Assembly (NCBI GenBank): GCA_001600635.1
Contig: BCKL01000002.1
Location: 1,429,425 to 1,493,424 of the forward strand
Length of the DNA: 64,000 nt
Source: Leucosporidium creatinivorum
Taxonomy: Eukaryota; Basidiomycota; Microbotryomycetes; Leucosporidiales; Leucosporidiaceae
Direction of reading: 5' to 3'
How positions within the stretch are numbered: position 1 is the first letter of the stretch; the number at the start of each line of letters is the position of its first letter. Both the position numbers and the translations under genes were made by a program. This document shows positions 6,143-63,596 of this stretch, one piece after another. Under the pieces are notes generated by a model. The model searched no databases and was not told where the DNA came from. It saw only the letters and a program-made list of their open reading frames with translations.

Positions 6143-9100
6143 TCAACTCTCCATCCTGTCCCCTCCAGCAGCCTCTCCTCCACCACTCGCACCCGCGTTA
6201 ACAAACACATCCTCATCCTCCTCATCCGAGCTAGGGTCCGAGATGAGTCCCTCGTTACGACGACGAGCTTCTTCCTCGGCCGCCTCCTCGGCTTTGATGG
6301 CGCGCGTGTGGGAGCAGTTGCTGGAGGAGGGTGCATGGGAGGAGGAGTGGAGATGGGAGAGGGGGGAAGAGCATGGAGGAGGCGCGGTGAGAGGGTCAGC
6401 AGAGCGAGCGCGATAGCGGGCGAAGAGGGCCGAGCGAGAGGCTCACCACCTGTTCGCGAAGAAGGCGGGGTCTGTAGTGAGGCGAAGGGACTTGGTCAGC
6501 TGCAGCGCCCTCATCGCGCCCGAGACAACGCGACGACTCACTCGCTTCCAACCAAGCCATCGCCTCGGCGCTGACCAACCTCTTCGCCGTCTTGGGATTA
6601 GCCGTCTCCACGGTAGCGAGGACGACATTATGGCAGATGACGCTCGTCCTCGTCAACCTGGGCTGAATGATATCGGATCCATCCTCCGACAGCCTGGGCT
6701 CGACAGTGGACGAGATGTGCGAAACGTCGTCGCAGCCGACTCCCTGAGCTCGTTCGAGGAGGATGCGGATGGCGTCGATCTTGAGGGAGGTGGGGGTGAC
6801 CCATTTGGCGAAGAAGGGGACGAGGAGGTGGTCGAAAGTTTGCTGAGGTGCAGAGGGGTTGAAGCTGGAGTCGACGAGGACGGCGCCGAAGAGGCTCTGT
6901 GGAGGCAGGGGTCAGCGAGGCCGAGGTAGGAGACGGAGACTGTAGCTACCTCGACGATGTCAGCGACGGCCTTGGGAGCTGTAGCGATGTCCAGGTCAGC
7001 GCTTGCGCCCTCGAACGTCGAGTAGGAACTTACGATCGGCGAGCAGCCAGTACGGCCTCAGCTGCCTCTGCTCCTGCGCCGCTTGCACGATCTCGAGATC
7101 CTTCGCCTTGTTGATCCTCTCGCGGTAAACCTCGATGCTCTTGGCGAGGGCGTCATTGTCGAAGGCGAGCCACTTGTCAAGCTCGTACCTGTGAGCGAGA
7201 AGGTCAGCGCCGAGCGTCGAGAGGCGAAAAGAGAGGAAGAGCTCACTCGACGGCGATGGCGGCGAGGGTCTCATTGCTCAGAGCAGCGCCCTTAAGCTCG
7301 GTCAATTGACCTGGACTCAGCTCGCCCCAGCGAGTCCAGCAGTAGCGGACGACCATGAAGTCCAGGAGGGAATCGCCGAGCCATTCGAGGCGCTGGAACG
7401 AGACGGCGGCGTTGAGCTTGCTCGGGTGGGTCTGCGGCGAGATGAAGACGAGTAAGCGCTCAGTCGACGCTCTGAGCCTCGGAGCAGCTCACCAGGGCCT
7501 CGGTCAACAGATGACCATGCACGAAGCGATACGCCAGCTTCTCCTCGACCAGCACCGGCGCCTCAGCGACCGTCGCCCTCGCCGGGATCTCGCCGTAGAT
7601 CCTCGCAAAGTCGTCCCATCCCTTGATGTGGCTCACGTCGACGTGCAGCGCGATGGCCGCCTGGAGCGCCGTCTCAAAGCCATCGCAAAGGCCCGAGCGG
7701 TTGAAGCCCGTCTCGTAGGCGGCGCCGAGGAGAGCTTCCACGACGTCGGCGATCGTCTTGTCGCCGATGGTGGTGAACTCGGGAGGCGGCTGACCCTTTA
7801 GGAGCTCGAAGGCGGGCGGAAGGAATTGGCTGCGAGGGCGAGGGGAGGTCAGCGCGAATTCGAAGAGATTCAGCGCCGCCGGGTACGAGCCTACCGAGAC
7901 GTGAAGGGCCGGGAGACGAGGTAGGAAGGGAGGGTGAGCTTGAGACCGCCGATGAAGAGCTCGGCGTTTGAGATCTGCCTCAGGCGCTTGCGGTGGAGCT
8001 CTCCCTCGTGGCAGGTCTTCTCCATCGTAACGAAGCAGTTGACTGCGCGGGAGAGAGATTAGCTCCCAAGCTTTCGAGCAAAGAAGAAGAGTCGAAGGAC
8101 TCACCACTGCAGAGATATTTGAGAAACGCATCACCTAGAAGTTCGAGTCGCTCGTAGTCCTCCTCGAGACACGCCGACGGGGTCATGAGCGACATGCGAA
8201 CAAGTGCGGGATTGAGCGCCGAATTGAACACGCGCTGGTTGAGCTCGTCGACGAGGAGCAATTGATCAAGCTCGGTGAGGAGGGACGGCAGCATGAGAGC
8301 GGCTGTGGATAGGAAGGTTAGCGGGGTCTCGGGCGGGATGGAAGCAGCCGACACACTCCTAAAAATACTCGCGGGGAGCGAGTGGACACTGCAGAGCTGG
8401 GGGATGGCAAAGCGAGGCGTTTTCTGTTATCGCCGAGAGGGTCAGCAGCAGCCTTCGAGGGGGCGCAAGGGTCAATGTACGCGAAGGAGCCTCTTCTGCG
8501 AGGGAGTGACGTTGTTGGAGGGAGTGGCCGAGAGGTAGGTGACGACCTTGGGCATCTATGGTGCCGCGAGGAGGTCAGAGCCGAGGCGAGAGGTGCGGCG
8601 AGCAGTCGACGACTCACACGAGACACCTCCAGTAGCGGCTGATCGTCCTTGATGTTGTAGCGATGGAAGACCTGCTCGTTGAAGGACATGTCTGCAAAGG
8701 CGATCGAGGTCAGCTCGTCGTGAGTTGAGCAGGAGGGCCGAGACGAACAATAGTCGAGGACATTGGTGAAGCCGGCGTCGCTCTGCCTTCCAGGAGGGAG
8801 GGTGCTTTTGGGATGAAGGTCGTGGTGGGTCTTGTTGAAGAAGTAGCGGCCTGGAGATTGAGCGGTCAGCGCGCATTCTCGCTAACAACGAACAGCACGA
8901 CTCACAATCGTTCTTGCCCGCATCGACGATGACCGAATCGCCCAGCTTCGATAAATCCTTCCAGTCGAGCTTCTCCTCCTGGATCCTCGCGCCGTGCTCC
9001 ATCAGCGACCAGTCCAAACTCTCGACGCCCAAGCGATCGGCGAGTGAGCAGTCGGCCTTGAGGGGAGCGACAAAGTAGTTCATCTTCTCGCCGTCGATGT

Positions 9101-14693: not shown

Positions 14694-15702
14694 TCAGCGC
14701 AAGACGACTCCCTGTCCCCTCACGGCCAGGTAGGTCTGAATCACCGCCGGCTGGAACGTCTTGAGCACCTCGTACACCTCGGCGTTGTGGTAGCGGAGGG
14801 TCGACTTGGGGTCGGTGTAGGGTGCCTTTGGTAGGCGAGAAGCGAGGATGGCAGGGTCGGTGGGAGGTGGGTGAGAAGGGAGGGGCCGGGGAGCGGCGAG
14901 GGCGGGATGAGGAGAGAGAGCCGGTCAGGCGTAGGCGGGAAAGTGATAGGGAGTAGAGGGATGGATTTAAGGTGAGGCAGCGGAGTGAAGGGGAGAAGCA
15001 GCGGGAAGTCAGCTCGGGTTCGGCGAAAGCGAGCAGAATCGCCGAATACTCACCTCGAGGCCAGTGACATCGCACCACTTCTTCTGCGGTACAACACTCG
15101 GAGGAGCTTCGACCGTAGCATCTGTTCGAGTGCATCTGATCAGTCTCGGAACTTCAGCCCGACAAGGTGAGGAGCGATCTCACAGCTCACTCCCTCCTTC
15201 CACTCGACAGTCCTGCCTTCCTGCTCCGCCTTGATCCTCTCCTCCCTCTTGGCCGCCTCGACTCGGTCCACCCTCTCCCGCTCGAGCGCGAGGATCTGCT
15301 TCAAGCTCTTGTTGCGCTTGCCTCCGGCTGCCTTGACGCTGTAATAAGGGTTCTTGAACGGCTTGGGCACGTCGGCGTAGGACAGACGCTCGGCTGTTGA
15401 CTGTTGTGAGTTACAAGTCACCGAGGTCAGCGAGCGTAGGGGACACCGAGGCGGCAGAGCCAGACGAACGCTGGGCTGAGGTGTGCCGTGGTAGGAGTAG
15501 GAGGACTTGGATGGTGGCCTGTAGAGCAGCAGGAGAGTCAGCTCTACCGCTGGTGAGCTACAGAAGCGAGAGAGAGAAGAGCCTACATCTGCGCAGCGAA
15601 CGGGCCGGAAGAAAGAGAGGTGGGGATCGCGTCGAGCTGGCTTTCACCTCGACGACAACTCTCGCTGCTTCTCGGATCGACTACAATCTCGACATCTTGC
15701 AT
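14694..15702 (-). CDS. IES6: INO80 chromatin-remodelling complex subunit Ies6 (INO80C)
   Basis: A nuclear subunit of the INO80 nucleosome remodeller. The C-terminal YL1_C domain is clear: VEAPPSVVPQKKWCDVTGLE, then YTDPKSTLRYHNAEVYEVLK and IQTYLAVRGQGVVLR, with TGA at the complement of 14694-14696. These blocks align with yeast Ies6. Upstream exons contain ADVPKPFKNPYYSVKAAGGK and a basic helix rich in Glu/Lys/Arg. The N-terminus is uncertain. An upstream ATG at 15700-15702 (MQDVEIVVDP) is in frame. A GTAGGC donor, however, splits another ATG as AT|G across an intron (near 15591/15535), giving the alternative start MPPSKSSYSYHG. Part of this gene is copied at 25827-26255. The F-box-like gene starts divergently 268 bases away. 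Confidence 0.85.
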
Positions 15703-15969
15703 CGGACTGCAAGGCTCCTGGGCTGCTCTTACAAGACCTACAGCATCGCCTACGGCTGGCGGCTGAGGACGCCGCTTTCTCGTCTCGCTCCCGCTCCCGC
15801 TCTTCACGCGTCCTGAAGGTGAGTACTGGCTCCAAGTACAGTGAAAGGCTTCGCTCTACGATCTCGTCGCTCTTCTGCTCTCGTCGGGAACGGTACGAGA
15901 GCACAACGACCCGTTCTTCGCTTAGAGCGTTGGCTGATGGCTGTTTTGTCTCGCTGCAGAGCTCGTGAG

Positions 15970-17227
15970 ATGACCACCACTCGCTCAACGTCTCGAGAGA
16001 CCATTGATTCCATCCATCTCGCCTCCAACCCCTCACCTTCCTCTCCTTCGCCATCTCCGACCCGCGCCTCCCTCGCCTCCCTTCCCGCCGAGCTCAAGCT
16101 CGCCATCGTCGACTACGTGCTTATCGACAGCAACGATGTGAGGGGAAGAGATGCTCGATGCCTTTCCGACAAGATGGCTCTGTGGACGATCAGTCGCGAG
16201 TTCCGTTGCTTGACGACTGCTCGGCGATGGGAGGTGAGCCGTCGCTCGCAAGCAGCCGCTGAGGTGGACGTGGCTGACTCGCGACCTCAAACAGTCTCTT
16301 ACGCTCCTAGATCAGCCACCGTGGCAGCTCGAGCGGCTTGTCGCCGACGTTCTGCCCAAGTACGCCTCCTTCATCAAGCGGGTCTCGGTCGCATTCGTGC
16401 TCCGAGGTGTCGAGGAGCGCACACTTCCCATGGAACCTCCCCCACTACACAAGCGGCGACGAGGGCTTTATCTGGACATCATACGCATGCTACCTGCGAT
16501 CAACAACTTCCACCTCGGCGGGCTGCCAGACTGCGAACGTTCCCCCTTCCTCCGCGTCGTCTCTACGCTCCCACTGCGCCTCGAAACCCTCCGCCTCGGC
16601 AATGGTGACTACCTTGGATCAGAGTGGAACCTCATTGGATTGATTCTCGAGTTGCAGATTCAAGTTCGGAAGCTCACGCTGAACATATGGTCGTGGCGCG
16701 GGAGGGAGTTGACCCGAGCTCCAGCCATCCGACTCACCAACGCCCTTCACCGCCTCACCAACCTCCAACATCTCTCCTACCGCGATCCTCTTCTCGACGT
16801 CGGAGCCACCCACCGGCTTCGCCAACTCGAGCTGGACGTCGCCGACGCTGCCCTCGCCTACGACATCATTTCAAACGTCAAGGAGACTCTGGTCGACTGT
16901 AGGCTGACGGGTCCCAGCGGCACCTACCAAGCCGTCACCACGCCTTTCCTCCTCCTTCCATCCCTCTGCACGCTCAGCCTCTCTCAGCACCTCTTCGCCC
17001 TTCTTCCGCAACTCGACGCTCCCCGCCTGTGGCAGCTGCATCATTACGCAGTTGGACAAGATCACTCCTACATTGTGCCAGTGCTGGAACTGCGTAGTCA
17101 GCCCTCGTTGCAGCTGATGATGATTGGGTGTATTGCGGCAGGGCAGGCCAGCACACAGCCTCTAAAGCAGTGGTGCTCAAAGCAGGGCGTGAAGCTTGAG
17201 TGGGACGTATGGAGGTTGGAGATGTAA
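15970..17227 (+). CDS. F-box-like / leucine-rich hypothetical protein
   Basis: Begins MTTTRSTSRETIDSIHLASN, a Ser/Pro-rich lead. An F-box-like segment follows (SLASLPAELKLAIVDYVLID, then ALWTISREFRCLTTARRWE). After one intron (about 16231-16293) comes about 320 residues with irregular Leu-rich spacing, such as LRLGNGDYL, NLQHLSYRDPL and LRQLELDVADAAL. This is the build of fungal F-box/LRR-like proteins, often substrate receptors of SCF ubiquitin ligases; the target is unknown and the F-box is weak. A likely 5'UTR intron (about 15819-15959, GTGAGT to CTGCAG) ends ten bases before the ATG. TAA is at 17225-17227. The gene model is good; the function is tentative. Confidence 0.7.
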
Positions 17228-17815
17228 CGAGACTCTGCTCGGCAGGCGCTATGGGCAAGCGCGAGGAGCGCCTTGAAAAATGCGAGGAGCGAGCGCCGAA
17301 CCTCGGCTCATATCAACTCCCAGCGACAAAAGGGACCGATCTGCGATCCGTCTATCAGAGGATGATGGGAGATGAGCGTACAGCGGGCTATCCTGGCGGG
17401 GTGGCGGGGATCGGGGTGACAGCGATGGCCCTCGCGAGGTGCTGAGCGTTCACGCCACGGTTGACTGAGGCTCTCTCAGCCGGGATCAGCTCCTCGTGAA
17501 GGCTTGTCAACATACACAAAGGCCGATGGAAGCCCCTGCAGCTTTCACCTCGCCAGCGTGGCCACCTGAAACCCTTCGCGCGACAGACCATCGCCGAGCA
17601 CCGGCGCCGAGGGGGAGGGAGGAACGGCTTCAAGCTGCCAGACACTACAGTAGCGCATAGCAGCTTTCTTGGTCTGTACTACAGCGGGTGGGTCGAACGT
17701 CATCCACCCTCGAAGGTCGATCAAGCCGAGCCAAAGATCGTCTCGGCTCCAGAAAGCGAGCTCGTAACATTGTGCGGATTCCCTCCTCCTCGTTAATCTA
17801 CTCTACTCGCTCGCT
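17228..17815. other. Intergenic region, no gene seen
   Basis: 588 bases between two genes on the same strand. It should hold the end of the F-box-like transcript and the promoter of the TupA-like gene. Open frames here are short and have no family look. No repeat or RNA gene recognised. Confidence 0.4.
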
Positions 17816-19277
17816 ATGAAGGCTATCGCTGTGGCCACCTTCTCCATCCTCAGCAAGGCTGCTGCACGCCCCTTCGTGGAGCTCGAGCTCGACCCCCACC
17901 AGCTCGCAAGTCGAGGGCTGCTCACAACACGCGCCATTACTTGCACCAACTCGACCGTCGTCGCTGCTGCTACCTACACTGGTTCCAACACTACGAGCTC
18001 CGATGTGCGCCTGAGGATCTCGAACGGCGGTGGTGAGCTACAGTTGAGCCCGCTCGCCCCACTTTCCGCTCGACGCTAAACGCTTGGCCCTGCAGCTGGA
18101 CAGTCGGGTCTCGTCGGCGCTCTGGCAAGAGCTTATATCGACTATGCTCTCGCTACTAACATCACCGACGAGCCGTTTGCTGTAGGTGACCCTTCCCGTC
18201 CTCGCCGAGCGATCGCCGTGAAGCTCATCTCGCTCTACAGGTCGATTGGATTACTGGGGACACAACAGACTCGATCAAGTATATCACTAGTGGGGACGCC
18301 GACATTGCTATCACCTACAACGCTCAAGCCGAGTACCGGGCGCTTAACTTGAGCTCGGCGACTCGGCGCGAGTACGGCTTTCGCGATCATTTCTACCTCT
18401 TGGGACCTGCGTGGGTGTCGATCTGTACCATGATAACTGTTCCCTACTGTTACTGACCCGCCACATCGCCTACACAGCAACAACACGGCCAACCTCACCT
18501 CGAACGACACCGTCCTCGACATCTTCAACAAGATCGTGACCACTGGCGACTCGGGAAATGGGGTGAGTGTCTACGCAATCCTTTGCGGTCTTTACGACCT
18601 CGCCGACACTTCGAACTTACGCTGACCCTCTTCGGTCGACTCGCTTCCTTCTCTCGCAGACTCGCTTCCTCTCCCGCTACGACAAGTCGGCGACGAACAT
18701 CAAGGTGAGCATGTTTGAACCGTCATCTAAGCAGTGCCGAGTCAGCTCGCGGTGTGCGCAGAGCAGAAGAGCGATTTTTCCTCTCGGTCGCCGAAGGATT
18801 GACGCTCTCTACCTCGCCCTCGCCCTTCTTAACCCCAAGCAGGAATCGCTACTCTTCGCAACCATCGGACAGATCCCTTGGGCGCTGGCGACGTCCAAGT
18901 GGTACCATATGTACCCTCAATTCCCTCTACAAGCCCTCCGCGCTGCCTCGCTGCTCGGCGAGTACACCCTCTCAGACCGCGGCACCTTCCTCACCCTCGA
19001 ATCGCAAGACTCGAACCTCACCGATGCTCTCGTCCTCTACAAGCGAGGAGAGGACACCGACCCCAAGGATCTGCTCCTCAATCCCGCCTCATTCCTTCTC
19101 GGCGCCCGAGTCTGCGACGACAACTTGCCGATTGTCGAGGGTTTCATGGATTGGATGATGCTCGCCAATGGAGGGCAGGCAGTGGTGAGCAATTATGTGC
19201 AGCCAGGGAGCGCCGAAGTGCTCTACACGAGGGCTCCCAACTGCACTGCCACGCCCGCCGCTTGCGCCGGATGGTGA
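17816..19277 (+). CDS. Secreted TupA-like (tungstate-binding-type) solute-binding protein
   Basis: Resembles the substrate-binding protein of bacterial tungstate ABC uptake (PBP-like superfamily). Visible family blocks are DITSGDADIAITYNAQAE-like sequence near 18280-18330, TRFLSRYDKSATNIKESLL (the phosphate-loop-like SRxDxSxT segment), LLGEYTLSDRGTFLTLE (TLTDRGT in bacteria) and the late VEGFMDWMMLANGGQAVV. At least nine N-glycosylation sequons (NST, NTT, NIT, NLS, NNT, NLT, NDT, NLT, NCT) and a weakly hydrophobic start (MKAIAVATFSILSKAAARP) argue for secretion. Six exons fit, with TGA at 19275-19277. No ABC permease or ATPase partner lies nearby, so transport through an ABC system is not shown. 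The ligand is unknown. The last exon could splice onward past 19272, but the present end is plausible. Confidence 0.75.
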
Positions 19278-19570
19278 GGGGGTGCTCGAGGGAGGGAGGA
19301 CAGGTACGTCTATGTAATGCAGCTCAAACGGGGCTATAATGCTCCTTGCGACCTGCTTCGGCGCACAGCAGCCAACTGACATCTCGTAGCTCGCTTCCTG
19401 GCCATCGCCGAGCTTCTCTTGCTCTCTCGCTGCGGCGAATGGTGAGCCGCAAGACCACGACAGGAGAGATCACAGATAAGAGCACTTCTTTTGCAAATAT
19501 TGAACTACCGAGAACCCGTCTAATCATCAGCAAAAGTCAACCGCCGCCCTCCCTTCAGTCTCAGATATAT

Positions 19571-22500
19571 CTAGACCTCGGCGGCGAGAACCGCAACGCG
19601 AGGGCCGTCCTCTTTCTCCTTCTCCTCCTGCTCCAACGAGGTACTATGTCCTGATCCAAGAGCATCCGAACGCGCTGCGAGTACCTCGTGGGCGTAGACG
19701 GCCTCCTCGATGAGACTGGCGCTGTGGGGAAAGAGCCGAGAGAGGACGGTGTGCACTAACGCCCCTGAAACCATCGAGTAGACGACACTGCAGGCGTAGA
19801 GGTACTGCCAGTCCCCAATCTCGAAGCTGGTGTCGAGAGCGTGTCCCATGCTGGTCGAAAACATTGGTCAGCGCTGTCTCTCGTCGGCGCCGAGCATCGT
19901 CGTCAGGCTCACCCAGGAATAAGAGGACCGATAGCGATAGCCAAGGCGCAGACACTGCGCCAATTGACTCCGTATGCATCTGGAAATACGATCCGAAGTA
20001 AGTTACCGGCTAGGAGATTCTTGAAGTGCCCCGAAAGCTGCTCACAATGGTAGATGCCGTGAGGATCATAGAGCGCGGGAACATCAATCTTGCGGCCCTT
20101 GACGAAAAAGTAGTCGGCAGCCATGACCGAAGCCATGGGAGCGAGCACGCATCCGTAAGAGCCGGCGACTGTGAGTTGAGGCGCAAACGGTCAGCGCTTT
20201 ATGCTCGGCGCAATCGCAGCCGAAATAAAGGTAGACGTACATGAGACGATGGAGCTGGCGCTGGACATGACCTTCCAGGGAGCAAAGGCAAAGACGCCGA
20301 CGGTGACGGCGATCATCTGGCCGCGGAAGATGGAGACGTAGCGAGGCAGCAAAGCGGCAGAGTCGTTGGCCGCCGAGATGGAGTTGGCGGCTGAGGGCGT
20401 CAGGATCAGCTTATGTGCATACTTCGAGTTGGCGGGAAGCTTACTGATGTTGAGACCGATGTCTGTTGGAAGCATGACGGAGGCAAGAGAGGGCGAAGCT
20501 TGTCAGCCGCGAAGCCGAGCTCCGAGCTTCGAAGCAGACGACCCTGGGGACTCACAGCCCAAGATCCACGCGAGAGAGCACACGAAGGCGAAGAAGCGAC
20601 CAGTCGAGCTTCCAGTGTCGAGCCACTTCTGAGTGACTGCAAGGATAGGTCAGCCCTCAGCGCTTGCCGCCCACATGAAACGTACTCTGGAATGGCGTGT
20701 AGAGGATCTCACCGTACACCGCTTGCAGACAGCAGGTTGCAATGGCTCCGAACATTGCGGTGATGGCCCACATCGAGGGCACGAAGAGGATTTGAGCAAC
20801 AGCAGACTTGGGCTCCTTCAGATATCGAGAGACTGCCGAAACGGCGAGTGAGGGCCGTTCTGAGACCTCGGTGAGGAGTGCTCGTACTCACAATCTCCAA
20901 CATTGCAGGCGAGGGTGACCCACTGTCCTGTCTGTGAGGAGACCGCAGTCATGAAAGCGAGGAAACCTGCTTTTCCGTGCAGCGTCGACTTGGCGGCGAG
21001 GGAAGGACCAGCTTGATCACCGGCCTTATGGATAGCCCAAGCCCTGTAGATAAGGAGCAGGTCAGCCGACGTCTCGGTCTTCGAAGGGGAGCGAGAGGCG
21101 CACATGGTGCCGACGGCGACGATTGGCAGAAGAATTCCTTTGGCGAGGAAGATGGGCTGGAGGCGGCGAGGGTGCACGAGGCAGAAGGGGACTGTGGAGT
21201 TCATCAGCAATATTATCCGAGACGTGACAAAGAGGGCGACTCACACTGTAGCAGCCAGAAGATGAAGAAGGACAGAAACTCTTGCGAGGTGACTCCGGCC
21301 GAAGCGGGCAGGTGCTGTACGGCAGCAGGTACATAGACTCTTGGTCAGAAGAGCAGATCAAGGAATAGATAAAGAAAGACTCACGTTTGGGAAGTCGGCG
21401 TAGGAGGGAGCCATCGCAAGGACTGGGAGTAGGGAGCGGCGAGTCAGGCTCGGCGATCCGTCGGCGAGAGGCTGTGGACTCACTGAGCTGGGTGACACCA
21501 AGTCCTCCGCTGTAGGTTTGAATTGAGAACCTGTACACGATGTAGTAGCATCAGTGACTGGATCGGCGTGGAAGTGACGAAGGCAAGGAAGAGAGCGAGC
21601 GGGAGACGAGCGATGAAAGAAGAAAGGGGAGGGAAGGGAGAGGGCGCGGCCTGCTGGAAGAAGGAGGCAGGCAGAGACGCACCAGAACCAAGCAATTACC
21701 ATACGAGAGACCACGCAGAACTTGCTAAACTGGTAGCCGTCTGAGAGAAAGAGAAGCAAGGGTCAGCGCCGAGCGGCTCTCTCGAGTGTGAGCGAGATGG
21801 CCTACAGGTAGCGCGGCAGGTGACGGCGAAGGGAGTGTGGAGCATGGCGCCGACGAGACCGTTGGCGCTGACCACAATGCAGAGCGCCGTTCCACCGAAG
21901 AAGATGGCGAGCAATCCCTCCCACCTTTGGAAAGCGAGAGACAGTCGAGGTCAGCCTCGAGGAGAAGCGAGGACCAGGAGCAGAAATCGAGCCGTACCAG
22001 GTCAGACCGAGGGAGAAAAGAGAAGCAATCGCGCTCCAGGTCGATCCTTGCACGAGGTCTGTCAGAGAGAGGAGAGAAGGAGTGAGCAGGACAGCGCCGA
22101 GGTCTCTGACGGCAGCGAGAAGGAAGGCGGCGGAGAGAGACGGCGCCGGGTGTTGTGTGTATACGCGGAAGTTTGAGCTACATACCGGACATCCAGTAGC
22201 TGTGTGCGTAAGAGGTCAGCCTCGCAATCCGATTCGCTTCAAGTTCGGCGCTCGCGCTTACAGGATAAAGGTCGAGGTCGTCCAGCTCCATTCGGAGGGC
22301 GGGACGGGCTCCACTGTGAGAATAAATATATCAGTAACTCTCTACAGCGACGAGACAGCTTATCGCTCACTGTCGTGGTTCGTCCAAGTCCCCTTCGGCG
22401 CAAAGTTGGAGTCGGGCTGAGGAAGTTGCCACGCCTGGATGGTTGTTGCTCGAGCACGGAGCTGGGCCTTCGTAGGGATCGAGTTTCGGATTGTTGACAT
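19571..22500 (-). CDS. NCS1-family permease, Fur/Dal type
   Basis: A plasma-membrane symporter of the nucleobase-cation-symport-1 family; Fur-type members take up uracil, uridine, allantoin, thiamine or nicotinamide riboside, and which one is not decidable here. The start is MSTIRNSIPTKAQLRARATT, then YWMSDLVQGSTWSAIASLFS, GGTALCIVVSANGLVGAM and YGYQFSKFCVVSRMVIAWFW. Later come NIGLNISKLPANSKYAH and the hallmark VMAADYFFVKGRKIDVPALY, followed by DPHGIYHCEQLSG and a last pair of spans. About twelve hydrophobic segments are spread over a dozen or more exons, some very short. The acidic tail EQEEKEKEDGPRVAVLAAEV ends at TAG (complement of 19571-19573). It is divergent from the alpha/beta hydrolase gene, 370 bases apart. 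Confidence 0.88.
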
Positions 22501-22870
22501 GCTGTAGTGGTGCTAGCTGTGTCGGCGATTGAGGTGATATGAAGAAGACAAGGAGCAAGACCGAGTCGATAGGTCGATAGAGCCGGGCGATGGGGGCGAG
22601 GTCGTGGGGCTCAGCTCACGGCAGTCAGGCTACTTGGCAGCGATTGATAGAGCTTCCCCTTGGCAAGCTGTACTGTACTTAGCTCATTTGGCGATTGCAT
22701 CCTGCGCAACCTCGAGCCGAAAGTCAGGCCGAGGCTCGGCGACCAGCTCCCGACGAGCCTGTTAGCCCGTTCTCCTACAAGCGCTCGGTTATCACTCATT
22801 CGAGTCACCACCGTTCAGCCTCATCGCTTGCCTCCCCCCCCCCTTCACTTCAACCTCAACGACCAACACG
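22501..22870. promoter_or_regulatory. Divergent intergenic region, NCS1 permease / hydrolase
   Basis: 370 bases between two outward-facing start codons. Near 22832-22841 there is a run of ten C residues inside a pyrimidine-rich leader of the hydrolase gene. Nothing else was recognised. Confidence 0.4.
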
Positions 22871-24161
22871 ATGCAGCCTCCTCTTCCGACCACGTACTGC
22901 TTCAAGGAGGTCGACGGGCTCAAGATCAACGCCGACGTCTTTCTCCCTACTTCCGAGAGCGGTCATCCGCTGCCCATCCTTCTCTGGTTCCATGGCGGCG
23001 GGCTGTTAATGTCGTCTCGGGCGACAATCGGACCTGACCTTCGTCGCGCAGTGAGCTGCTGACTTCCTTGCAGAGGTTCAAATCAGACGAGAGCTAATCT
23101 ACTGTCAATTTGCAGGCGGAAAAGTACAAGATCGCAGTCGTCAGCGCCGACTACCGCCTCGCGCCTCAAGCTCCGATCCCTCAAATTATGGAGGATGTAC
23201 GAGATGCTGCAGCTTGGGTGCGGAAAGAGCTTCCTGGAATCTTGGATGATAGAGCCGTTGACCCGAGTCGCCTAATTGTGGGCGGCCACAGCGCCGGTGA
23301 GTCGTGCTCGGCGATCCTCAGTTGACGGCGCTGACGGCAGCATGAGACGCAGGTGGCTACCTCGCACTACTCTCCGCTAGTACCAAAATAGGAATCTCCC
23401 CCCCTCCGAAGGCGATCATTGCTCTGTACCCCATCACCAACCCGTTCGTCCTTGCGACCCGCCAATCTCGGTCGGCGCCGGCTGACTGTTTCCTGCACTC
23501 CAGGCGAGGCCCTTTCTTTGCTGAGGCGCAGAGACCCGTTGCAGGTATCCCGGGCGACCGTATCATCACCCATGAAGAGATGGCGCGCCACATTGATCCC
23601 TCGGCGCCCGTTCTCGGCGGCTCAACCCCTCTTTGCTTCCCGCCTCCGCATGGCGATCGCGGCGAGCTGTACCTCTACATGGCGAGTGATGCAGCTTTCT
23701 GACGGGCGCGAAGGCTGACTCGGTTCTCATTCTGCAGGTTCAAGAGGCAATCTTAGAGAAGCTCTTGTTCGGCAAGGCGCCTGAAGCCGAGGTCGACGAC
23801 TACATCCCGGCCAGGTTCTGGAGCAAAGACGCACCTCCCGTGAGCCACAAAATTCCTCTCAACCGACGCTGAGAACTGATCCACTCTCTGTAGACTTGGA
23901 TCCTGCACGGAGAGGTCGACAACCGAGTGGGAATCGAGCAGTCCTTAAGCGTGAGTGGCCTTTACCCGTGGAAGGTAGTTGAAAGCTGACCCCTTGTCAC
24001 TCTCTCAGCTCGTCGAGGCCATCGAGACCGCCGGCGCACCCTACACCTTTGAGCAGATCCCTTTGCCCGGCGCTCAGCACCTCTTCGACCACTTCAACCC
24101 CGCCGAAGAGATGGCGTCGATGTACGCTTTTATTACCAAGCACATTGATGTAGATGCCTGA
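22871..24161 (+). CDS. Alpha/beta hydrolase, HSL-like esterase/lipase family
   Basis: A serine hydrolase with the oxyanion-hole HGGG (ILLWFHGGGLLM), the strand AVVSADYRLAPQAPIPQIME and the nucleophile elbow GGHSAGGYLAL (split by an intron near 23297-23351). A late Asp region, WILHGEVDNRVGIEQS, and a His block, PGAQHLFDHF, complete the triad. This layout is that of the hormone-sensitive-lipase group (alpha/beta hydrolase 3), whose members cleave small esters or lactones; the substrate is unknown. No signal peptide is seen, so it is probably cytosolic. Seven or so exons are joined; an intron near 23446-23503 uses the unusual donor GTTCGT. TGA is at 24159-24161. Right after the stop the duplicated Dicer remnant begins. 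Confidence 0.85.
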
Positions 24162-24187
24162 AGAAGTGCATGATGATATCGAGGTCT

Positions 24188-25445
24188 TCTAGCGCCGTCG
24201 CGAAGGCCCGCACGATTGAAGCCCGTCTCGTAAGCTGCGCCGAGGAGAGCCTCAACGACGCCGGCGATGGTCTTGTCGCTGATGGTGGTGACCTCGGGAG
24301 GAGGCTGACCCTTGAGAAGCTCAAAAAAGGGTGGGAGGAATCGGCTGCGAGGGCGAGGGGAGGTCAGCCGGGCTTCATGGTGAGGTCAGCGTCGCCGAGA
24401 ACGAGCCCACCGAGACGTGAAAGGTCTCGAGACAAGGTAGGAGGGGAGGTTGGGCTTGAGTCCGCTGATGAAGAGCTCGGCGTTCGAGATCTGCTTCAGG
24501 CGCTTGTGATGGAGCTCTCCCTCGTGGCAAGTCTTCTCCATCGTGACGAAGCAGTTGACTGCGCGGGAGAGATATCAGCTCCCAAGCTTTCGAGCAAACA
24601 AGCACAGTCGAAGGACTCACCACTGCAGAGATATGTGAGAAACGCATCACCTAGAAGTTCGAGTCGCTCGTAGTCCTCCTCGAGACACGCCGACGGGGTC
24701 ATGAGCGACATGCGAACAAGTGCGGGATTGAGCGCCGAATTGAACACGCGCTGGTTGAGCTCGTCGACGAGGAGCAATTGATCGAGCTCGGTAAGGAGGG
24801 ACGGCAACATGAGGGGGGCTGTGAAGCGGGGGTCAGCACGGGCTCCAGAGGGGCGAGAAGAGCCAACATACTCCTGAAGATGCTCGCTGGCAGCGAGTGG
24901 ACACTACAGAGTTGGGGGATGGCAAAGCGAGGCGTTTTCTATCATCTTCGAAGGGTCAGCAGCCGCCTTCGAAGAGGAGCAAGGGTCAACGTACGCGAAG
25001 CAGCCTCTTCTGCGATGGAGTGACGTCGTTAGAGGGAGTGGACGAGAGGTAAGTGACGACCTTGGGCATCTATGGAGCGGCAAGGAGGTCAGAGCCGAGG
25101 CGAGAGGTGAGGCGAGCTGCCGACGACTCACTCGGGACACCTCCAGCAGCGGCTGATCTTCCTTAATGTTGTAGTGATGGAAGGTCTGCTCGTTGAAGGA
25201 CATGTCTGCGAAGGCGATTGAGGTCAGCTCGTCGTAAGTGGAGCCAGAGGGCCGAGACGAACAGTAGTCGAGGACATTGGTGGAGCCGGCGTCGCTCTGC
25301 CTTCCAGGAGGGAGGTCGCGCTTGGGGTGAAGGTCAGAGTGAACCTTGTCGAAGAAGCGGCGGCCTAGAGTGAGCGGTCAGCGCACATCTTCGCCAACGC
25401 CGAACAGCCCGACTCACACTCTATTTTGCTCGCATCGACGACGGT
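24188..25445 (-). pseudogene. Partial Dicer copy (PAZ and RNase IIIa region only)
   Basis: A truncated duplicate of 7667-8935 on the same strand, with introns kept. Identity by eye is about 87% over the 24210-24390 part, about 98% over the exon at 24617-24797 (three differences in about 180 bases against 8101-8281) and about 91% over 25080-25310. It encodes MSFNEQTFHHYNIKEDQPLL (PAZ edge) and CLEEDYERLELLGDAFLTYL (RNase IIIa). The second acidic motif reads DKTIAGVVEALLGA where the parent has DKTIADVVEALLGA: GAC became GGC at the metal-binding aspartate. The helicase, dimerisation region and RNase IIIb are absent. Several exons stay open, but the copy cannot make a Dicer. Confidence 0.9.
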
Positions 25446-25826
25446 CTACCATCGTCGGAGAAGAGCAGAAGACGAGAGTGCTGAGTTCTGCAGGGGGGCG
25501 CGAGAAGCCAAGTCAGCTTTGGGCGCAGCGAGCAGCAGGCTAGGACCGCTACTGAGACTTACCAAGTGGAAGGCCTTGGGCTGTTCTTGCAGCTCGGAAA
25601 GCTCATCCGATCTTGGCCAGCACTTGTTCAACGCATGTGAGAGTCAACAGCCGAGCCATACTCCTCGACACCTTCTCGAAACGGACTTACACGCCTCGCC
25701 GAAATCTCCGGTCGGTCGTCGTGACCTCGCCCCAAGTCCCAGATGTTCGCTGGTAGTCCCAGAGCGTCTCGAAAGCTGAGCTTATGTATGAACGTCGTCG
25801 CCAAAAGCCCTCGTTCGTCGACCAAC
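25446..25826. other. Unassigned segment between the two duplicate pieces
   Basis: About 380 bases lie between the Dicer piece and the IES6 piece of the duplication. By eye it matches neither the 8.9-15.3 kb interval of the parent region nor any known family. It may be decayed parent sequence or filler from the deletion that collapsed the copy. Confidence 0.45.
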
Positions 25827-26255
25827 CTAGTCGCGCTTGCCTCCCGCTGTCTGGAGGCTGTAGTGAGCATACTTGGACGGATTGAGCACGTCGACGTAGG
25901 ACAGACGTTCAGCTGTCGACTGTTCTGAATGATGAGGGGCAGAAGTCAGCGAGCGTGAGGACAGCGAGGCGAGAGAGCCAGACGAACGGCTGGCTGAGGT
26001 GTGCCGGGGTAAGAGTAGGACGACTTGGATGGTGGCCTGTAAAGCAGCAGGAGAGTCAGCTCTACTCCTCATGACTTACAGCAGCGAGAGAGAGAAGAGC
26101 CTACATCTGCTCAGCGAACGGGCGGAGAAAGAGAGGTGGGGATCGCGTCGAGCTGGCTTTCCCTTCGACTACATTTCTCGCTGCTTCTCGGATCGACCAC
26201 AATCTCAACGGATCGCTGTGGACTACAGGACTGCTCGAGCTGCTCACACAAGACT
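25827..26255 (-). pseudogene. Partial IES6 copy (N-terminal part and 5' flank)
   Basis: A duplicate of about 15312-15745, on the same strand and in the same order relative to the Dicer piece as in the parent locus. The piece STAERLSYVDVLNPSKYAHY aligns with parent STAERLSYADVPKPFKNPYY. The stretch around 25980-26130 (second exon, intron and first exon) is very similar to 15465-15620. Homology fades past about 26190. The YL1_C domain, which defines Ies6, is missing, so no working subunit can come from it. Confidence 0.85.
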
Positions 26256-26484
26256 CTGCTTTCGCTGCTTTGCTCCGCACACGGAAGGAGCGCAACGAGC
26301 TCAGGCCTCTCGCTCCCTCGACACGACGTGTAGAGCGCTACCGAGCAGGGGAAGGACGATTGATCAACAGATGCTTCGCTCCTGCTGCCACACCTGCAGC
26401 GGTGAGGCAGTTCTCTCGGAGGCCAAGGACTCGGCGCTCGGACAAGTCTGTCAAGTAACTTCGTTACATGCAAGTCCCTGCGCT

Positions 26485-27290
26485 CTACTCCTCGGGGTTC
26501 CCGGATCCTGGGGGACGAGGCAGGCTCTTGTACGTCTTCCACAGCTCGGCGTAGGACGCCTTGATCCGGCTGACCTGCGCCTGGAGCTTCTTCTTGACCT
26601 CGCTCTCCTCCAGCTCCTCCACCATCTTCACCACAAACTTGGCCTTCCAGAACCGGTTCTCGTGATGGTAGTTGCCCTCGGGAGCCCCCCACACGGCCTC
26701 GTTGATTCGGCGGGAGTAAGGCTCGTCAAAGAACTTCTCCGAATCCTCGTAGCTCCAGAAGATGTAGATGTTGTCCCAGCCACCCCAAGTGATGGAGGCG
26801 AGACACATCGGGCAAGCTGGAAGGAGGAGACGGCTGTCAGTCATGCTCGAGGCGTGAAGGAATGCCGGCGCCGAGAAGGGGACTAACGGTCGTGAGTGGT
26901 GAAGAAGTATGTGTCCTTGGTCCTCAGCCTGCCCTCCTCGGGAAGCTCAAAGAACTCGCGGATGCAGTCCGTCTCGCCTGCAGGACAGCAAAGACTAAAG
27001 GTCAGCGCTCGAAGCTCGGCGACATGGACAGCTCGGCCTTACCGTGGATCAGCGGGCTCTTGTTCCACATGTTGGTGCCCGTGACAATGAGGTCAAGATC
27101 CTTCTTTCCGAAGATCCCAGCTCCGTACACTCCTCCGCCCTTGGCGATTCCCTTCGTGGTCTTGGGGAGGATCCTGCTCGGCGCGATCAGCTTCGAGTCG
27201 GATAGGGGCTCGGGGGATTGAGGAGACTCACTCGGTCTCGAGAGCATCGAGGAAGGTAGTGAGAAGCTGCTCGTCGGTGGTGGAGGTCAT
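26485..27290 (-). CDS. Zinc-dependent cytidine/deoxycytidylate-type deaminase
   Basis: A Zn-hydrolase of the cytidine deaminase-like fold that removes an amino group from a base or nucleotide. The start is MTSTTDEQLLTTFLDALETE, then TTKGIAKGGGVYGAGIFGKK. The zinc site is seen as PLIHGETDCIREFF (His ligand and catalytic Glu) and HDPCPMCLASITWGG (two Cys ligands), the latter restored across an intron near 26822-26885. A region rich in aromatic and acidic residues follows (YIFWSYEDSEKFFDEPYS), then a long helical tail. It differs clearly from yeast Fcy1, so the substrate (cytosine, guanine, nucleoside or other) is open. Four exons; TAG is at the complement of 26485-26487. It is divergent from a cytosine-purine permease, 348 bases apart, which favours a base-salvage role. 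Confidence 0.85.
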
Positions 27291-27638
27291 GATGGGCAGA
27301 GATGAGGAGGCAGGCGAGGAGATTCGAGACGAGGTGTGGGAGCAAGAAGGCCGCTGGAAGGTGTCGCGCTTCTTCATCTCCCGGCTCACTGCGGGCGGCT
27401 ACTTACAGCTTCACCTTGCGATAGGCTGGATCTACCACGGAAGTAGGGCGGGCTGACGGGCTGCAGGATTGCCCGTTGCCCCGGTTTATCTCGAGGAACA
27501 GGCGGCGCGCAAGCGCTTGGTTCTCGGCCTCGCAATCGACGGCAAGTGGGCGCGATATCTCTGATTGCTTCGAAGGCGAGATACCTCCAGTGCGCTTCTT
27601 CCTTTCCTCCACATTCCTTCCACCCCAGATAAAGCGCG
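27291..27638. promoter_or_regulatory. Divergent intergenic region, deaminase / cytosine-purine permease
   Basis: 348 bases between outward-facing start codons of two functionally related genes, so shared control is plausible. GATA-type sites would be expected for nitrogen control; a CGATAG at 27419-27424 and a CGATAT at 27552-27557 are the only candidates noticed. Confidence 0.4.
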
Positions 27639-61882: not shown

Positions 61883-63596
61883 ATGCCTGCCGCCAAGATT
61901 GCCATCATCTACTCGTCGACCTAGTGCGTTTGCTTCGCCTACTTCTCTACACCTTCGGTCCGCGACCTAACGCTCGCCCTTTTGCAGTGGTCACGTCCGC
62001 GTAGGTCTATCGACGGAACCTTACGTCTCTCCATTACGATGCACACCATCATCCCGCTGCTCTCTCGGACAGCGCCATCGCCGTGAAGTTCTGTGCGGGC
62101 ACCTTTGCACGTTTCGGAGCACGACTTGGAGTGGGGAAGCAAGCCAGCGGCCGCTGGGACTCGGAGTGCTGACCAGACTATCTTGTAACCTTCACAGACT
62201 CTCGCTGAGGCCATCGCCGAGGCATCCAAGGCCACCGGCGCCCAGGTCGACCTGTTCCAGTTCCCCGAGATCCTCTCGGATGAGGTTCTCGCCAAGATGC
62301 ACGCTGCCGTGAGTTTCTAATTGTTCTGCACTCAATCACTACGAGCTGACTCGGCTCTACCATGCAGCCCAAGGCCGACTACCCCATCATCAAGCCCGAT
62401 GACCTCAAGAACTACGACGGCTTCCTCTTCGGAATCCCCACCAGGTTCGTCCTGCGCGTTCACCTACATCTACCGAGCTCGCCACTAATTTTTTCAACTC
62501 CTCGACAACAGGTACGGACGCGCCGTCGGAGCCGCTTCGGCCTTCTTCGATGCTACCGGAGGTCTCTGGGCTACCGGCGCCCTCGTCGGCAAGTTCGGGT
62601 GAGTTTCCTCCTCCCCCCTTGACTCTCAGATCTCGGCTGACACTCTGCACCTCACAGAGGTATCTTCACTTCGTCGGCCTCGCAGCACGGAGGACAGGAG
62701 ACCACCGCTCTCACCACCATCCCCTTCTTCGCTCACCACGGAATCTCTTACGTCCCGATCGGTGAGCTCTCCCACTTCTAGTCCAGCCTGAAGCATCACT
62801 GACTTCTTCTCTCCCTCTCGACTGCAGGTTTCGGAGCTAGCCAGCTTTCCGACAACACCGAGATCGTAGGAGGTTCCGCTTACGGCGCCGCCGCCATCGC
62901 TGGAGGTGATGGATCCCGTGGACTCACCGAGAAGGAGCTCGCTGTCGCTGCCTACCAGGGCAAGTCGTTCGCCGAGCACGTCGGAATCTTCGTCGCCGGC
63001 AAGGCTTTGTAAGTCTTCGAAATCGCATCGCCGAACCCGAAGCTTTGAGTACTCGAGCTGTCGGTCGGTCTTGAGAAGCTAGGGAGATGGAGAGGGGTTG
63101 TGTAGACTCATTGTGCTCTAATACACCCCTGTCTACTCGCTACCTCGCTCTCGTATCGTCCGCCTTCGCGAGCCACTCGCTGACGATTTCCCTCGCTCTC
63201 TCGTGCAGCCTCGCCGCCGCCGCTCAAGAGGCTTCGGTACCCATCGCTGCGCACGCTCTCCCTACCTCGGCTGCCGCTGCCACCACCTGTGCGTTGCTCG
63301 CCTCCGTTCTCCATTCCCTCTGGCTTGGCGCTAACTCTCATCTCGCACCTCCAGCCGAGGCCGCCCCCTACGAGGTCAACGACAAAGACGCTGCTCCCGC
63401 CACCACCGAGACCGCTCCCACCGCTGGAGCTCTCACCGGCGCCGCCCCCGCAACCACCACCACTGCCCCTGCCCCGGTCGCCGCCGCCGAGCCCGAGAAA
63501 GCCACTCCTGCCGCCTCGACTCCCGCTCCCAAGCAGCAGAAGAAGAAGGGCGGATTCTTTGGATGCTGCGGAAAGGCTGAGCACTACGATGAGTAG
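61883..63596 (+). CDS. NAD(P)H:quinone oxidoreductase, WrbA/Pst2/Ycp4 family
   Basis: A flavodoxin-like FMN enzyme that reduces quinones by two electrons and so avoids semiquinone radicals. It starts MPAAKIAIIYSSTYGHVRTL (FMN phosphate loop), then AEAIAEASKATGAQVDLFQF, KPDDLKNYDGFLFGIPTRYG, FFDATGGLWATGALVGKFG, the SASQHGGQETTALTTIPFFA block typical of WrbA, and HHGISYVPIGFGASQ. After the flavodoxin domain an Ala/Thr/Pro-rich linker of about 90 residues leads to QQKKKGGFFGCCGKAEHYDE, a Lys patch plus a Cys pair that suggests palmitoylation and membrane attachment, as reported for yeast Ycp4. TAG is at 63594-63596. About seven introns, one with only 13 coding bases beside it. Confidence 0.92.

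What the first reader, a model, noticed from the sequence alone, without database searches (positions are those of the whole stretch)
24188..26255. Collapsed segmental duplicate of the Dicer-IES6 region
Two pieces, from 7667-8935 (Dicer) and about 15312-15745 (IES6), reappear 16.5 and 10.5 kb away in the same order and strand with introns retained. The parent interval is about 8 kb and the copy about 2 kb, so a DNA-level duplication followed by an internal deletion explains it better than retroposition. It lies between two intact genes, right after the hydrolase stop codon.
Basis: seen in the sequence. Interest (0 to 1): 0.72.

Follow-up and report, generated by a model that had tools for sequence, protein, structure and literature searches.

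The report
Relic of a duplicated Dicer gene
A fungus carries, a few genes away from its Dicer gene, a shrunken second copy of part of Dicer and of the neighbouring gene; it looks like an ordinary duplication that later decayed, although the Dicer part stayed readable and shares one nearly identical stretch with the working gene.

Summary
Window 24194-25441 matches Dicer 7679-8929 (87.6%) and 25827-26254 matches IES6 15308-15737 (83%). Order and strand are the same, introns are kept, and a search of the 27.7 Mb assembly returned no further place. Non-coding divergence is alike in both pieces (16.4%, 16.3%), which supports one event. (1) The Dicer piece still reads: 8 exons keep their lengths (837 bp), all 7 hand-read introns keep GT-AG, there is no stop, and 4 of 4 indels are intronic. 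Neutrality since birth fits poorly (joint 1 to 21 of 4000 runs at 8.2% to 3% divergence), though single counts are weaker. (2) A 178-bp tract with one mismatch sits in a 13% diverged background (0 of 5000 permutations), most simply gene conversion. (3) RNase IIIa has lost conserved residues, including a probable metal-ligand Asp. The 385 bp between the pieces matched nothing convincing, so this is not a clean deletion. Best reading: a decayed remnant of a duplicated Dicer-IES6 block whose Dicer part was coding for a time. An altered-RNase-IIIa regulator or antisense/siRNA source is possible but unshown. No related species were available.

The parts
7679..8929 (-). Parent of the first piece: 8 exons of Dicer (end of the region before RNase III, plus RNase IIIa)
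   Evidence: Pfam Ribonuclease_3 47.7 bits for the 237-aa piece; 18 distinct PDB sequences, all named Dicer or Dcr, by phmmer
15308..15737 (-). Parent of the second piece: 5' end of IES6 (leader, intron 1, exon 2, intron 2, part of exon 3)
   Evidence: YL1_C domain 36.3 bits at 14697-14825. The start codon is uncertain: the model starts at 15702, my hand reading has a split ATG at 15588-15587 plus 15518
24194..25441 (-). Dicer-derived piece of the copy; exons 25439-25418, 25364-25263, 25205-25132, 25069-24995, 24938-24872, 24818-24621, 24558-24411, 24344-24194, same lengths as in the parent, no stop
   Evidence: Pfam Ribonuclease_3 42.4 bits when spliced, 24.8 bits, below the 27-bit cut-off, unspliced
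24606..24783 (-). 178-bp tract with one mismatch to Dicer 8090-8267 (exon 6 and 15 bp of intron 6); candidate conversion tract
   Evidence: 0 of 5000 permutations reach it; third-position run of 58 codons, 2 of 20000 permutations
24260..24262 (-). Asp to Gly in the second RNase III motif (IADVVEA to IAGVVEA), which I align with the E. coli metal-ligand region 114-118
   Evidence: translations; D in 4 of 4 Dicer alignments printed; E. coli residues from a figure legend of PMC4395119 (passage)
24635..24635 (-). Only mismatch inside the tract: Lys to Thr (GDAFLKYL to GDAFLTYL)
   Evidence: K in 4 of 4 Dicer alignments printed
25442..25826 (.). Joint of 385 bp, no convincing match in window or assembly
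25827..26254 (-). IES6-derived piece; hand-read split start codon (26106-26105 plus 26036) kept; short frame MPPSKSSYSYPGTPQPASTAERLSYVDVLNPSKYAHYSLQTAGGKRD then TAG at the edge of homology
   Evidence: codon differences 7 synonymous, 14 not, the stop among the 14
22871..24161 (+). Neighbouring alpha/beta hydrolase gene; its transcript must end in the 32 bp before the copy or within or beyond it
   Evidence: gene model; Abhydrolase_3 93.1 bits
26485..27377 (-). Neighbouring cytidine/dCMP-deaminase-like gene
   Evidence: gene model; dCMP_cyt_deam_1 33.4 bits

Best explanation
One local DNA duplication placed a second Dicer-IES6 segment next to the hydrolase gene (shown: collinear pieces, kept introns, alike non-coding divergence). 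The Dicer part was for a time a coding unit, most simply part of a second full Dicer gene, while the IES6 part was not kept by selection (inferred from codon patterns). Later loss and rearrangement cut the block to about 2 kb and left 385 bp of unrelated filler (inferred). Gene conversion with the intact Dicer homogenised about 180 bp, mostly exon 6 (inferred). Today it is most likely a non-working relic: no helicase or RNase IIIb found, no joined gene from a start codon that I trust, and two conserved RNase IIIa residues changed.
For: Two collinear matches in the window, no other place returned from the assembly. Non-coding divergence 67/408 in the Dicer introns and 46/283 in the IES6 leader and introns. 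Eight exons of identical length, 7 of 7 GT-AG introns, no stop in 279 codons, 4 of 4 indels in introns, differences by codon position 19/16/52, dN 0.055-0.061 and dS 0.32-0.39 over four methods. Joint outcome under neutrality since birth in 1 of 4000 runs at the intron-calibrated 8.2% per branch and 21 of 4000 at 3%; nonsynonymous count alone P 0.015 at equal synonymous shares. IES6 codons 14 nonsynonymous to 7 synonymous against 29:46 in Dicer, Fisher P 0.027. Tract: 0 of 5000, 2 of 20000. RNase III profile score falls from 47.7 to 42.4 bits.
Against: With intron divergence as the clock, the nonsynonymous count alone does not reject neutrality (0.08); with a synonymous clock it does not if the copy holds 40% or less of the silent changes (0.11 at 40%, 0.50 at 30%). 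The joint rejection leans on four indels, and the tests were set up after the pattern had been seen. The seven introns are hand-read: the gene finder reads two of them (8748-8692 and 8356-8303) through as coding in the parent; were the second really coding, the copy, one base shorter there, would have a frameshift. The Dicers aligned run across that junction without the extra residues, which supports an intron. Synonymous divergence exceeds intron divergence, unexplained. No remnant of the rest of a larger block (15745-24150) was found in 26250-26490. No outgroup: branches cannot be polarised.
Confidence: 0.58

Rival explanations
1. The 2-kb mosaic was born in one step (template switching during repair copied a Dicer piece and an IES6 piece with filler between), was never a gene, and has drifted since.
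For: No trace found of the remaining block and an unmatched 385-bp joint; IES6 piece unconstrained; nonsynonymous count alone fits an intron clock (0.08).
Against: Intact exons, splice sites and intron-only indels together are improbable under neutrality (1 to 21 of 4000 runs at 8.2% to 3%).
Confidence: 0.22
2. The Dicer piece is a living short gene that makes a single RNase IIIa domain without its second-motif Asp; it could pair with Dicer or dsRNA and dampen RNAi.
For: Open spliced frame; a simple gene finder joins 420 codons plus stop, 25870-24074, score 77.0 against 144.2 for the 632-codon part of the parent that it modelled. An RNase III-like protein with altered catalytic residues works in fungal RNAi: passages of PMC4395119 on Mucor R3B2.
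Against: Profile score drop, changes at otherwise conserved residues, unconvincing first exons, last exon runs 88 bp antisense into the hydrolase coding end.
Confidence: 0.12
3. Convergent transcription makes the copy a source of RNA antisense to Dicer; siRNAs from it tune Dicer mRNA. The near-identical tract is kept because matching matters at RNA level.
For: Hydrolase on + ends 32 bp before the copy, so a 3' UTR longer than that is antisense Dicer (inference). 148 identical bases in a row. Piwi, RdRP and Dicer genes are present in the assembly.
Against: Conversion explains the tract equally; no transcript or small-RNA data; promoters and terminators were not scanned.
Confidence: 0.05
4. Assembly error or collapsed haplotypes.
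For: None found; no reads were available to test it directly.
Against: 12-17% divergence, unmatched filler, single copy in the search.
Confidence: 0.02

Closest known systems
Local segmental (tandem-type) gene duplication with later partial loss and interlocus gene conversion
   Same: Same contig, 16.5 kb away, same strand, introns kept, one near-identical tract
   Different: Two pieces of one block remain with 385 bp of unmatched joint; extent of the original duplication unknown. A paper on the class, PMC2588116, was seen in a search listing only
Dicer / Dicer-like genes of fungi
   Same: RNase IIIa domain and flanking exons clearly from the Dicer gene in the same window
   Different: Pfam finds only RNase III in the copy's frame: no helicase, Dicer_dimer or RNase IIIb; second-motif Asp changed to Gly
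Mucor R3B2 (RNase III-like protein with altered catalytic residues acting in RNAi)
   Same: One RNase III domain with changed catalytic residues in a fungus with RNAi genes (passages of PMC4395119, and PMC7763443)
   Different: R3B2 carries two dsRNA-binding domains and its family is described there as specific to Mucorales; here no such domain was found and there is no evidence of expression

Membership tests
DNA-level segmental duplication | Collinear pieces, same strand, introns kept | tested here: met
DNA-level segmental duplication | Pieces of one age | tested here: met
   16.4% and 16.3% non-coding divergence; the IES6 count includes 147 leader bases that the model takes partly as coding
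DNA-level segmental duplication | Single collinear diagonal with one simple gap | tested here: not met
   gap holds 385 bp without convincing match to the parent interval or assembly
DNA-level segmental duplication | Same placement in related species | not testable with these tools
   no relatives of this assembly are held; scans of viral and prokaryote collections gave none
Processed (retroposed) pseudogene | Introns lost | tested here: not met
   7 of 7 hand-read Dicer introns present
Transposon gene capture (Pack-type, Helitron) | Terminal inverted repeats or other element ends, further copies | tested here: not met
   six short inverted pairs in 24050-26600, none joining the two ends of the copy; single copy; target-site duplications and Helitron ends not searched specifically
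Functional Dicer | Helicase, two RNase III domains, intact catalytic residues | tested here: not met
Neutral pseudogene since birth | Stops, frameshifts and splice losses at neutral rate | tested here: inconclusive
   joint simulation against it, single counts weaker
Gene-conversion tract | Run of identity beyond the random spread of differences, also at silent sites | tested here: met
   this shows the run, not its cause

The most novel reading that the evidence does not exclude
The relic is a self-limiting device of RNAi: a Dicer fragment lying in the 3' flank of a convergent gene gives antisense RNA, and siRNAs cut by Dicer from it (perfectly matched over a 148-base run kept by selection) hold Dicer mRNA in check; alternatively its spliced frame makes an RNase IIIa domain without its second-motif Asp that competes inside Dicer.
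Probability: 0.06. Interest if true: 0.75.

Novelty: new member of a known kind. Interest (0 to 1): 0.3.

Why it matters
As read here it is an ordinary kind of genome scar. It is an example of a Dicer paralogue that came and went, in a genome where Argonaute genes also sit in local duplicates. If the antisense or altered-domain reading held, it would be a feedback loop on Dicer encoded by a duplicate, which small-RNA sequencing could test at once.

Tried and rejected
Retroposition: rejected, introns kept. Transposon capture: no inverted repeats at the two ends and no extra copies; target-site duplications and Helitron ends not searched specifically. Origin of the 385-bp joint: searched as DNA and as three minus-strand pieces in the own genome, and against the window by blastn and tblastx; plus-strand frames were not searched as proteins in the genome. 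Results: itself, two matches of E 0.31 and 0.40, and in the window nothing below E 0.021. Extension of homology beyond 26254: against 1-24150 nothing below E 0.26; against 26490-64000 one tblastx match of E 0.001 (26273-26455 with 62190-62372, 31% over 61 residues), outside the parent interval and not followed up. Full Dicer gene model: the finder did not join the part before 9314 and reads two of the seven hand-read introns through in the parent; Dicer identity rests on domains. Relatives: viral contigs and genome-contig scans had pattern matches (20 and 51 stretches) but no relative. Rfam (gathering scores) and ARAGORN on the window: nothing. The script stopped with an error before its dN/dS and Fisher steps; the counts used were printed before that, and the Fisher test was run. 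Structure prediction was not run: as I read its rule the tool takes unchanged window translations, and the protein here is spliced. Papers: PMC4395119, PMC7763443, PMC10328071, PMC4469406 seen as passages; others as search listings. I make no claim that this locus is absent from print; five paper searches were made.

Full report
Observation. Comparing the window with itself leaves two off-diagonal matches at E up to 1e-3: 7679-8929 with 24194-25441 (87.55%, 1253 columns) and 15308-15737 with 25827-26254 (83.1%, 431 columns), same strand, same order (one search agrees). A search of the 27.7 Mb, 63-contig assembly with 24162-26484 returns the stretch itself and those two parents, 3 of 3 scored places; the tool scores only its best candidates. 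The finding is real and not chance.

What the parents are. The first parent is a Dicer gene on the minus strand: two RNase III stretches, a Dicer dimerisation domain over the cut-off in an upstream reading frame (31.3 against 23.7 bits), a weak helicase start (17.9 bits, below the cut-off of 26), and Dicers as its relatives of known structure (18 distinct sequences at E up to 0.001). The copied part is the end of the region before the RNase III domains plus RNase IIIa; RNase IIIb is outside. A Dicer_dimer search of the assembly finds two genes, this one and one on C7. The second parent is the 5' end of IES6 (YL1_C, 36.3 bits).

One event. Leader and introns of the IES6 piece differ at 46 of 283 aligned bases (24/147, 8/68, 14/68), the Dicer introns at 67 of 408 (summed from the seven introns): 16.3% and 16.4%. 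The 147 leader bases are partly coding in the model, so the comparison is approximate. Alike divergence, order, strand and closeness make two separate events unlikely. The joint of 385 bp (25442-25826) is however not a recognisable piece of the parent interval: no convincing match by DNA or in translation in the window (lowest E 0.021), and in the own genome only itself as DNA and in three minus-strand pieces (one search also had E 0.31 and 0.40). So 'duplication followed by an internal deletion' is incomplete.

The Dicer piece kept its reading. With hand-read splice sites, all 8 exons have the same length in the copy (22, 102, 74, 75, 67, 198, 148, 151 bp), 7 of 7 introns keep GT and AG, and 279 codons have no stop. 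In the exon-by-exon comparison there are four indels, all in introns (BLAST's own alignment opened six gaps). Two of the seven introns (8748-8692, 8356-8303) are read through as coding in the parent by the finder; the PDB Dicers align across the second junction without extra residues, which supports an intron. Differences by codon position are 19, 16 and 52. dN is 0.055-0.061 and dS 0.32-0.39 over four methods; without the identical codon run dN is about 0.07 and dS 0.41-0.60 by two methods. I tested neutrality in two ways. Against a synonymous clock, counting the nonsynonymous changes of both branches (35.5) as an upper limit, a neutral copy with half of the silent changes stayed within it in 1.5% of 2000 runs, 0.5% also without a stop; at 40% of the silent changes 11% and 4.7%, at 30% 50% and 22%, at 20% 90% and 49%. 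In a joint simulation of stops, splice bases, indel places and nonsynonymous codons, with the tract left out, 1 of 4000 runs passed at 8.2% per branch, 4 at 6.5%, 11 at 5%, 21 at 3%, none at 10%. The single criteria are weaker: at 8.2%, no stop 0.35, splice bases 0.10, indels 0.02, nonsynonymous 0.08. I read this as coding integrity for part of its history, not as proof. The IES6 exons show no such pattern: 14 nonsynonymous codons (one of them the stop) and 7 synonymous, against 29 and 46 in Dicer, Fisher P 0.027.

The near-identical tract. From 8267 to 8090 the copy has one mismatch in 178 bp, while the whole piece differs at 159 of 1252 columns; 0 of 5000 random placements gave such a run (largest 132), and for zero mismatches the run is 148 against at most 95. 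At third positions 58 codons in a row are unchanged, reached by 2 of 20000 shuffles. Silent sites are included, so protein constraint does not explain it; gene conversion does. Its direction is unknown.

Present state. Two positions that are the same in 4 of 4 Dicer alignments printed are changed in the copy: GDAFLKYL to GDAFLTYL and IADVVEA to IAGVVEA. By a figure legend of PMC4395119 (passage), E. coli RNase III residues 38-46 and 114-118 are the stretches that hold the metal-binding acidic residues; the second change removes the Asp of that second motif (my alignment by eye). The RNase III profile score of the spliced piece falls from 47.7 to 42.4 bits, still above the 27-bit cut-off; unspliced the copy scores 24.8, below it. 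Pfam finds no helicase or RNase IIIb in its frame. A gene finder written here joins 420 codons from 25870 to 24074, with weak first exons and an end 88 bp inside the hydrolase gene's antisense strand. I take the locus as a relic, with a small chance that it is a living short gene.

Setting. The hydrolase gene on the plus strand ends at 24161 (Abhydrolase_3), so its transcript either stops within 32 bp or runs into antisense Dicer sequence (inference). The assembly has several Piwi, RdRP and RNase III places, so RNAi is plausible in this fungus. For comparison, a passage of PMC4469406 gives one Dicer, two Argonautes and one RdRP for the basidiomycete Microbotryum lychnidis-dioicae. This makes the antisense/siRNA reading testable but does not support it over conversion.

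Limits. No related fungus is in the collections (one search says that this genome has no relatives there; searches gave none), so direction of change, age and the ancestral arrangement stay open.

Noticed in passing
L038:3528-6294 with L039:839-3605 (C14); L041:1-5454 with L042:3741-9006 (C4); L043:3435-7083 with L044:1-3663 (C25): Piwi-bearing segments occur as three inverted pairs: 99.9% over 2.8 kb with 4.5 kb between the arms, 93-94% over 5.3 kb in two blocks with about 15 kb between, 87.5% over 3.7 kb with about 44 kb between. The last two reach the edge of a fetched stretch and may be longer; L038, L039, L041 and L042 hold 1 to 4 N. A further pair on C14 (L037, L040) is direct, 86%.
   Followed up: partly
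assembly-wide: RdRP matches over the cut-off at four places (C3, C9, C4, C2), Piwi matches over the cut-off at eight places, two Dicer_dimer genes: a sizeable RNAi gene set.
   Followed up: partly
L009, L010, L012, L013: Further RNase III profile matches on C8, C13, C6 and C40, the first two over the cut-off, not assigned to genes.
   Followed up: no
window 22871-24161 and 26485-27377: The copy lies between a plus-strand hydrolase gene and a minus-strand deaminase-like gene, so both genes are transcribed towards it (models).
   Followed up: partly
window 7679-8927 and 24194-25439: Synonymous divergence between Dicer and its copy (0.32-0.39) is about twice the intron divergence (16.4% raw), unexplained.
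   Followed up: no
window 26273-26455 and 62190-62372: Weak translated similarity, 31% over 61 residues, E 0.001 with low-complexity masking off.
   Followed up: no
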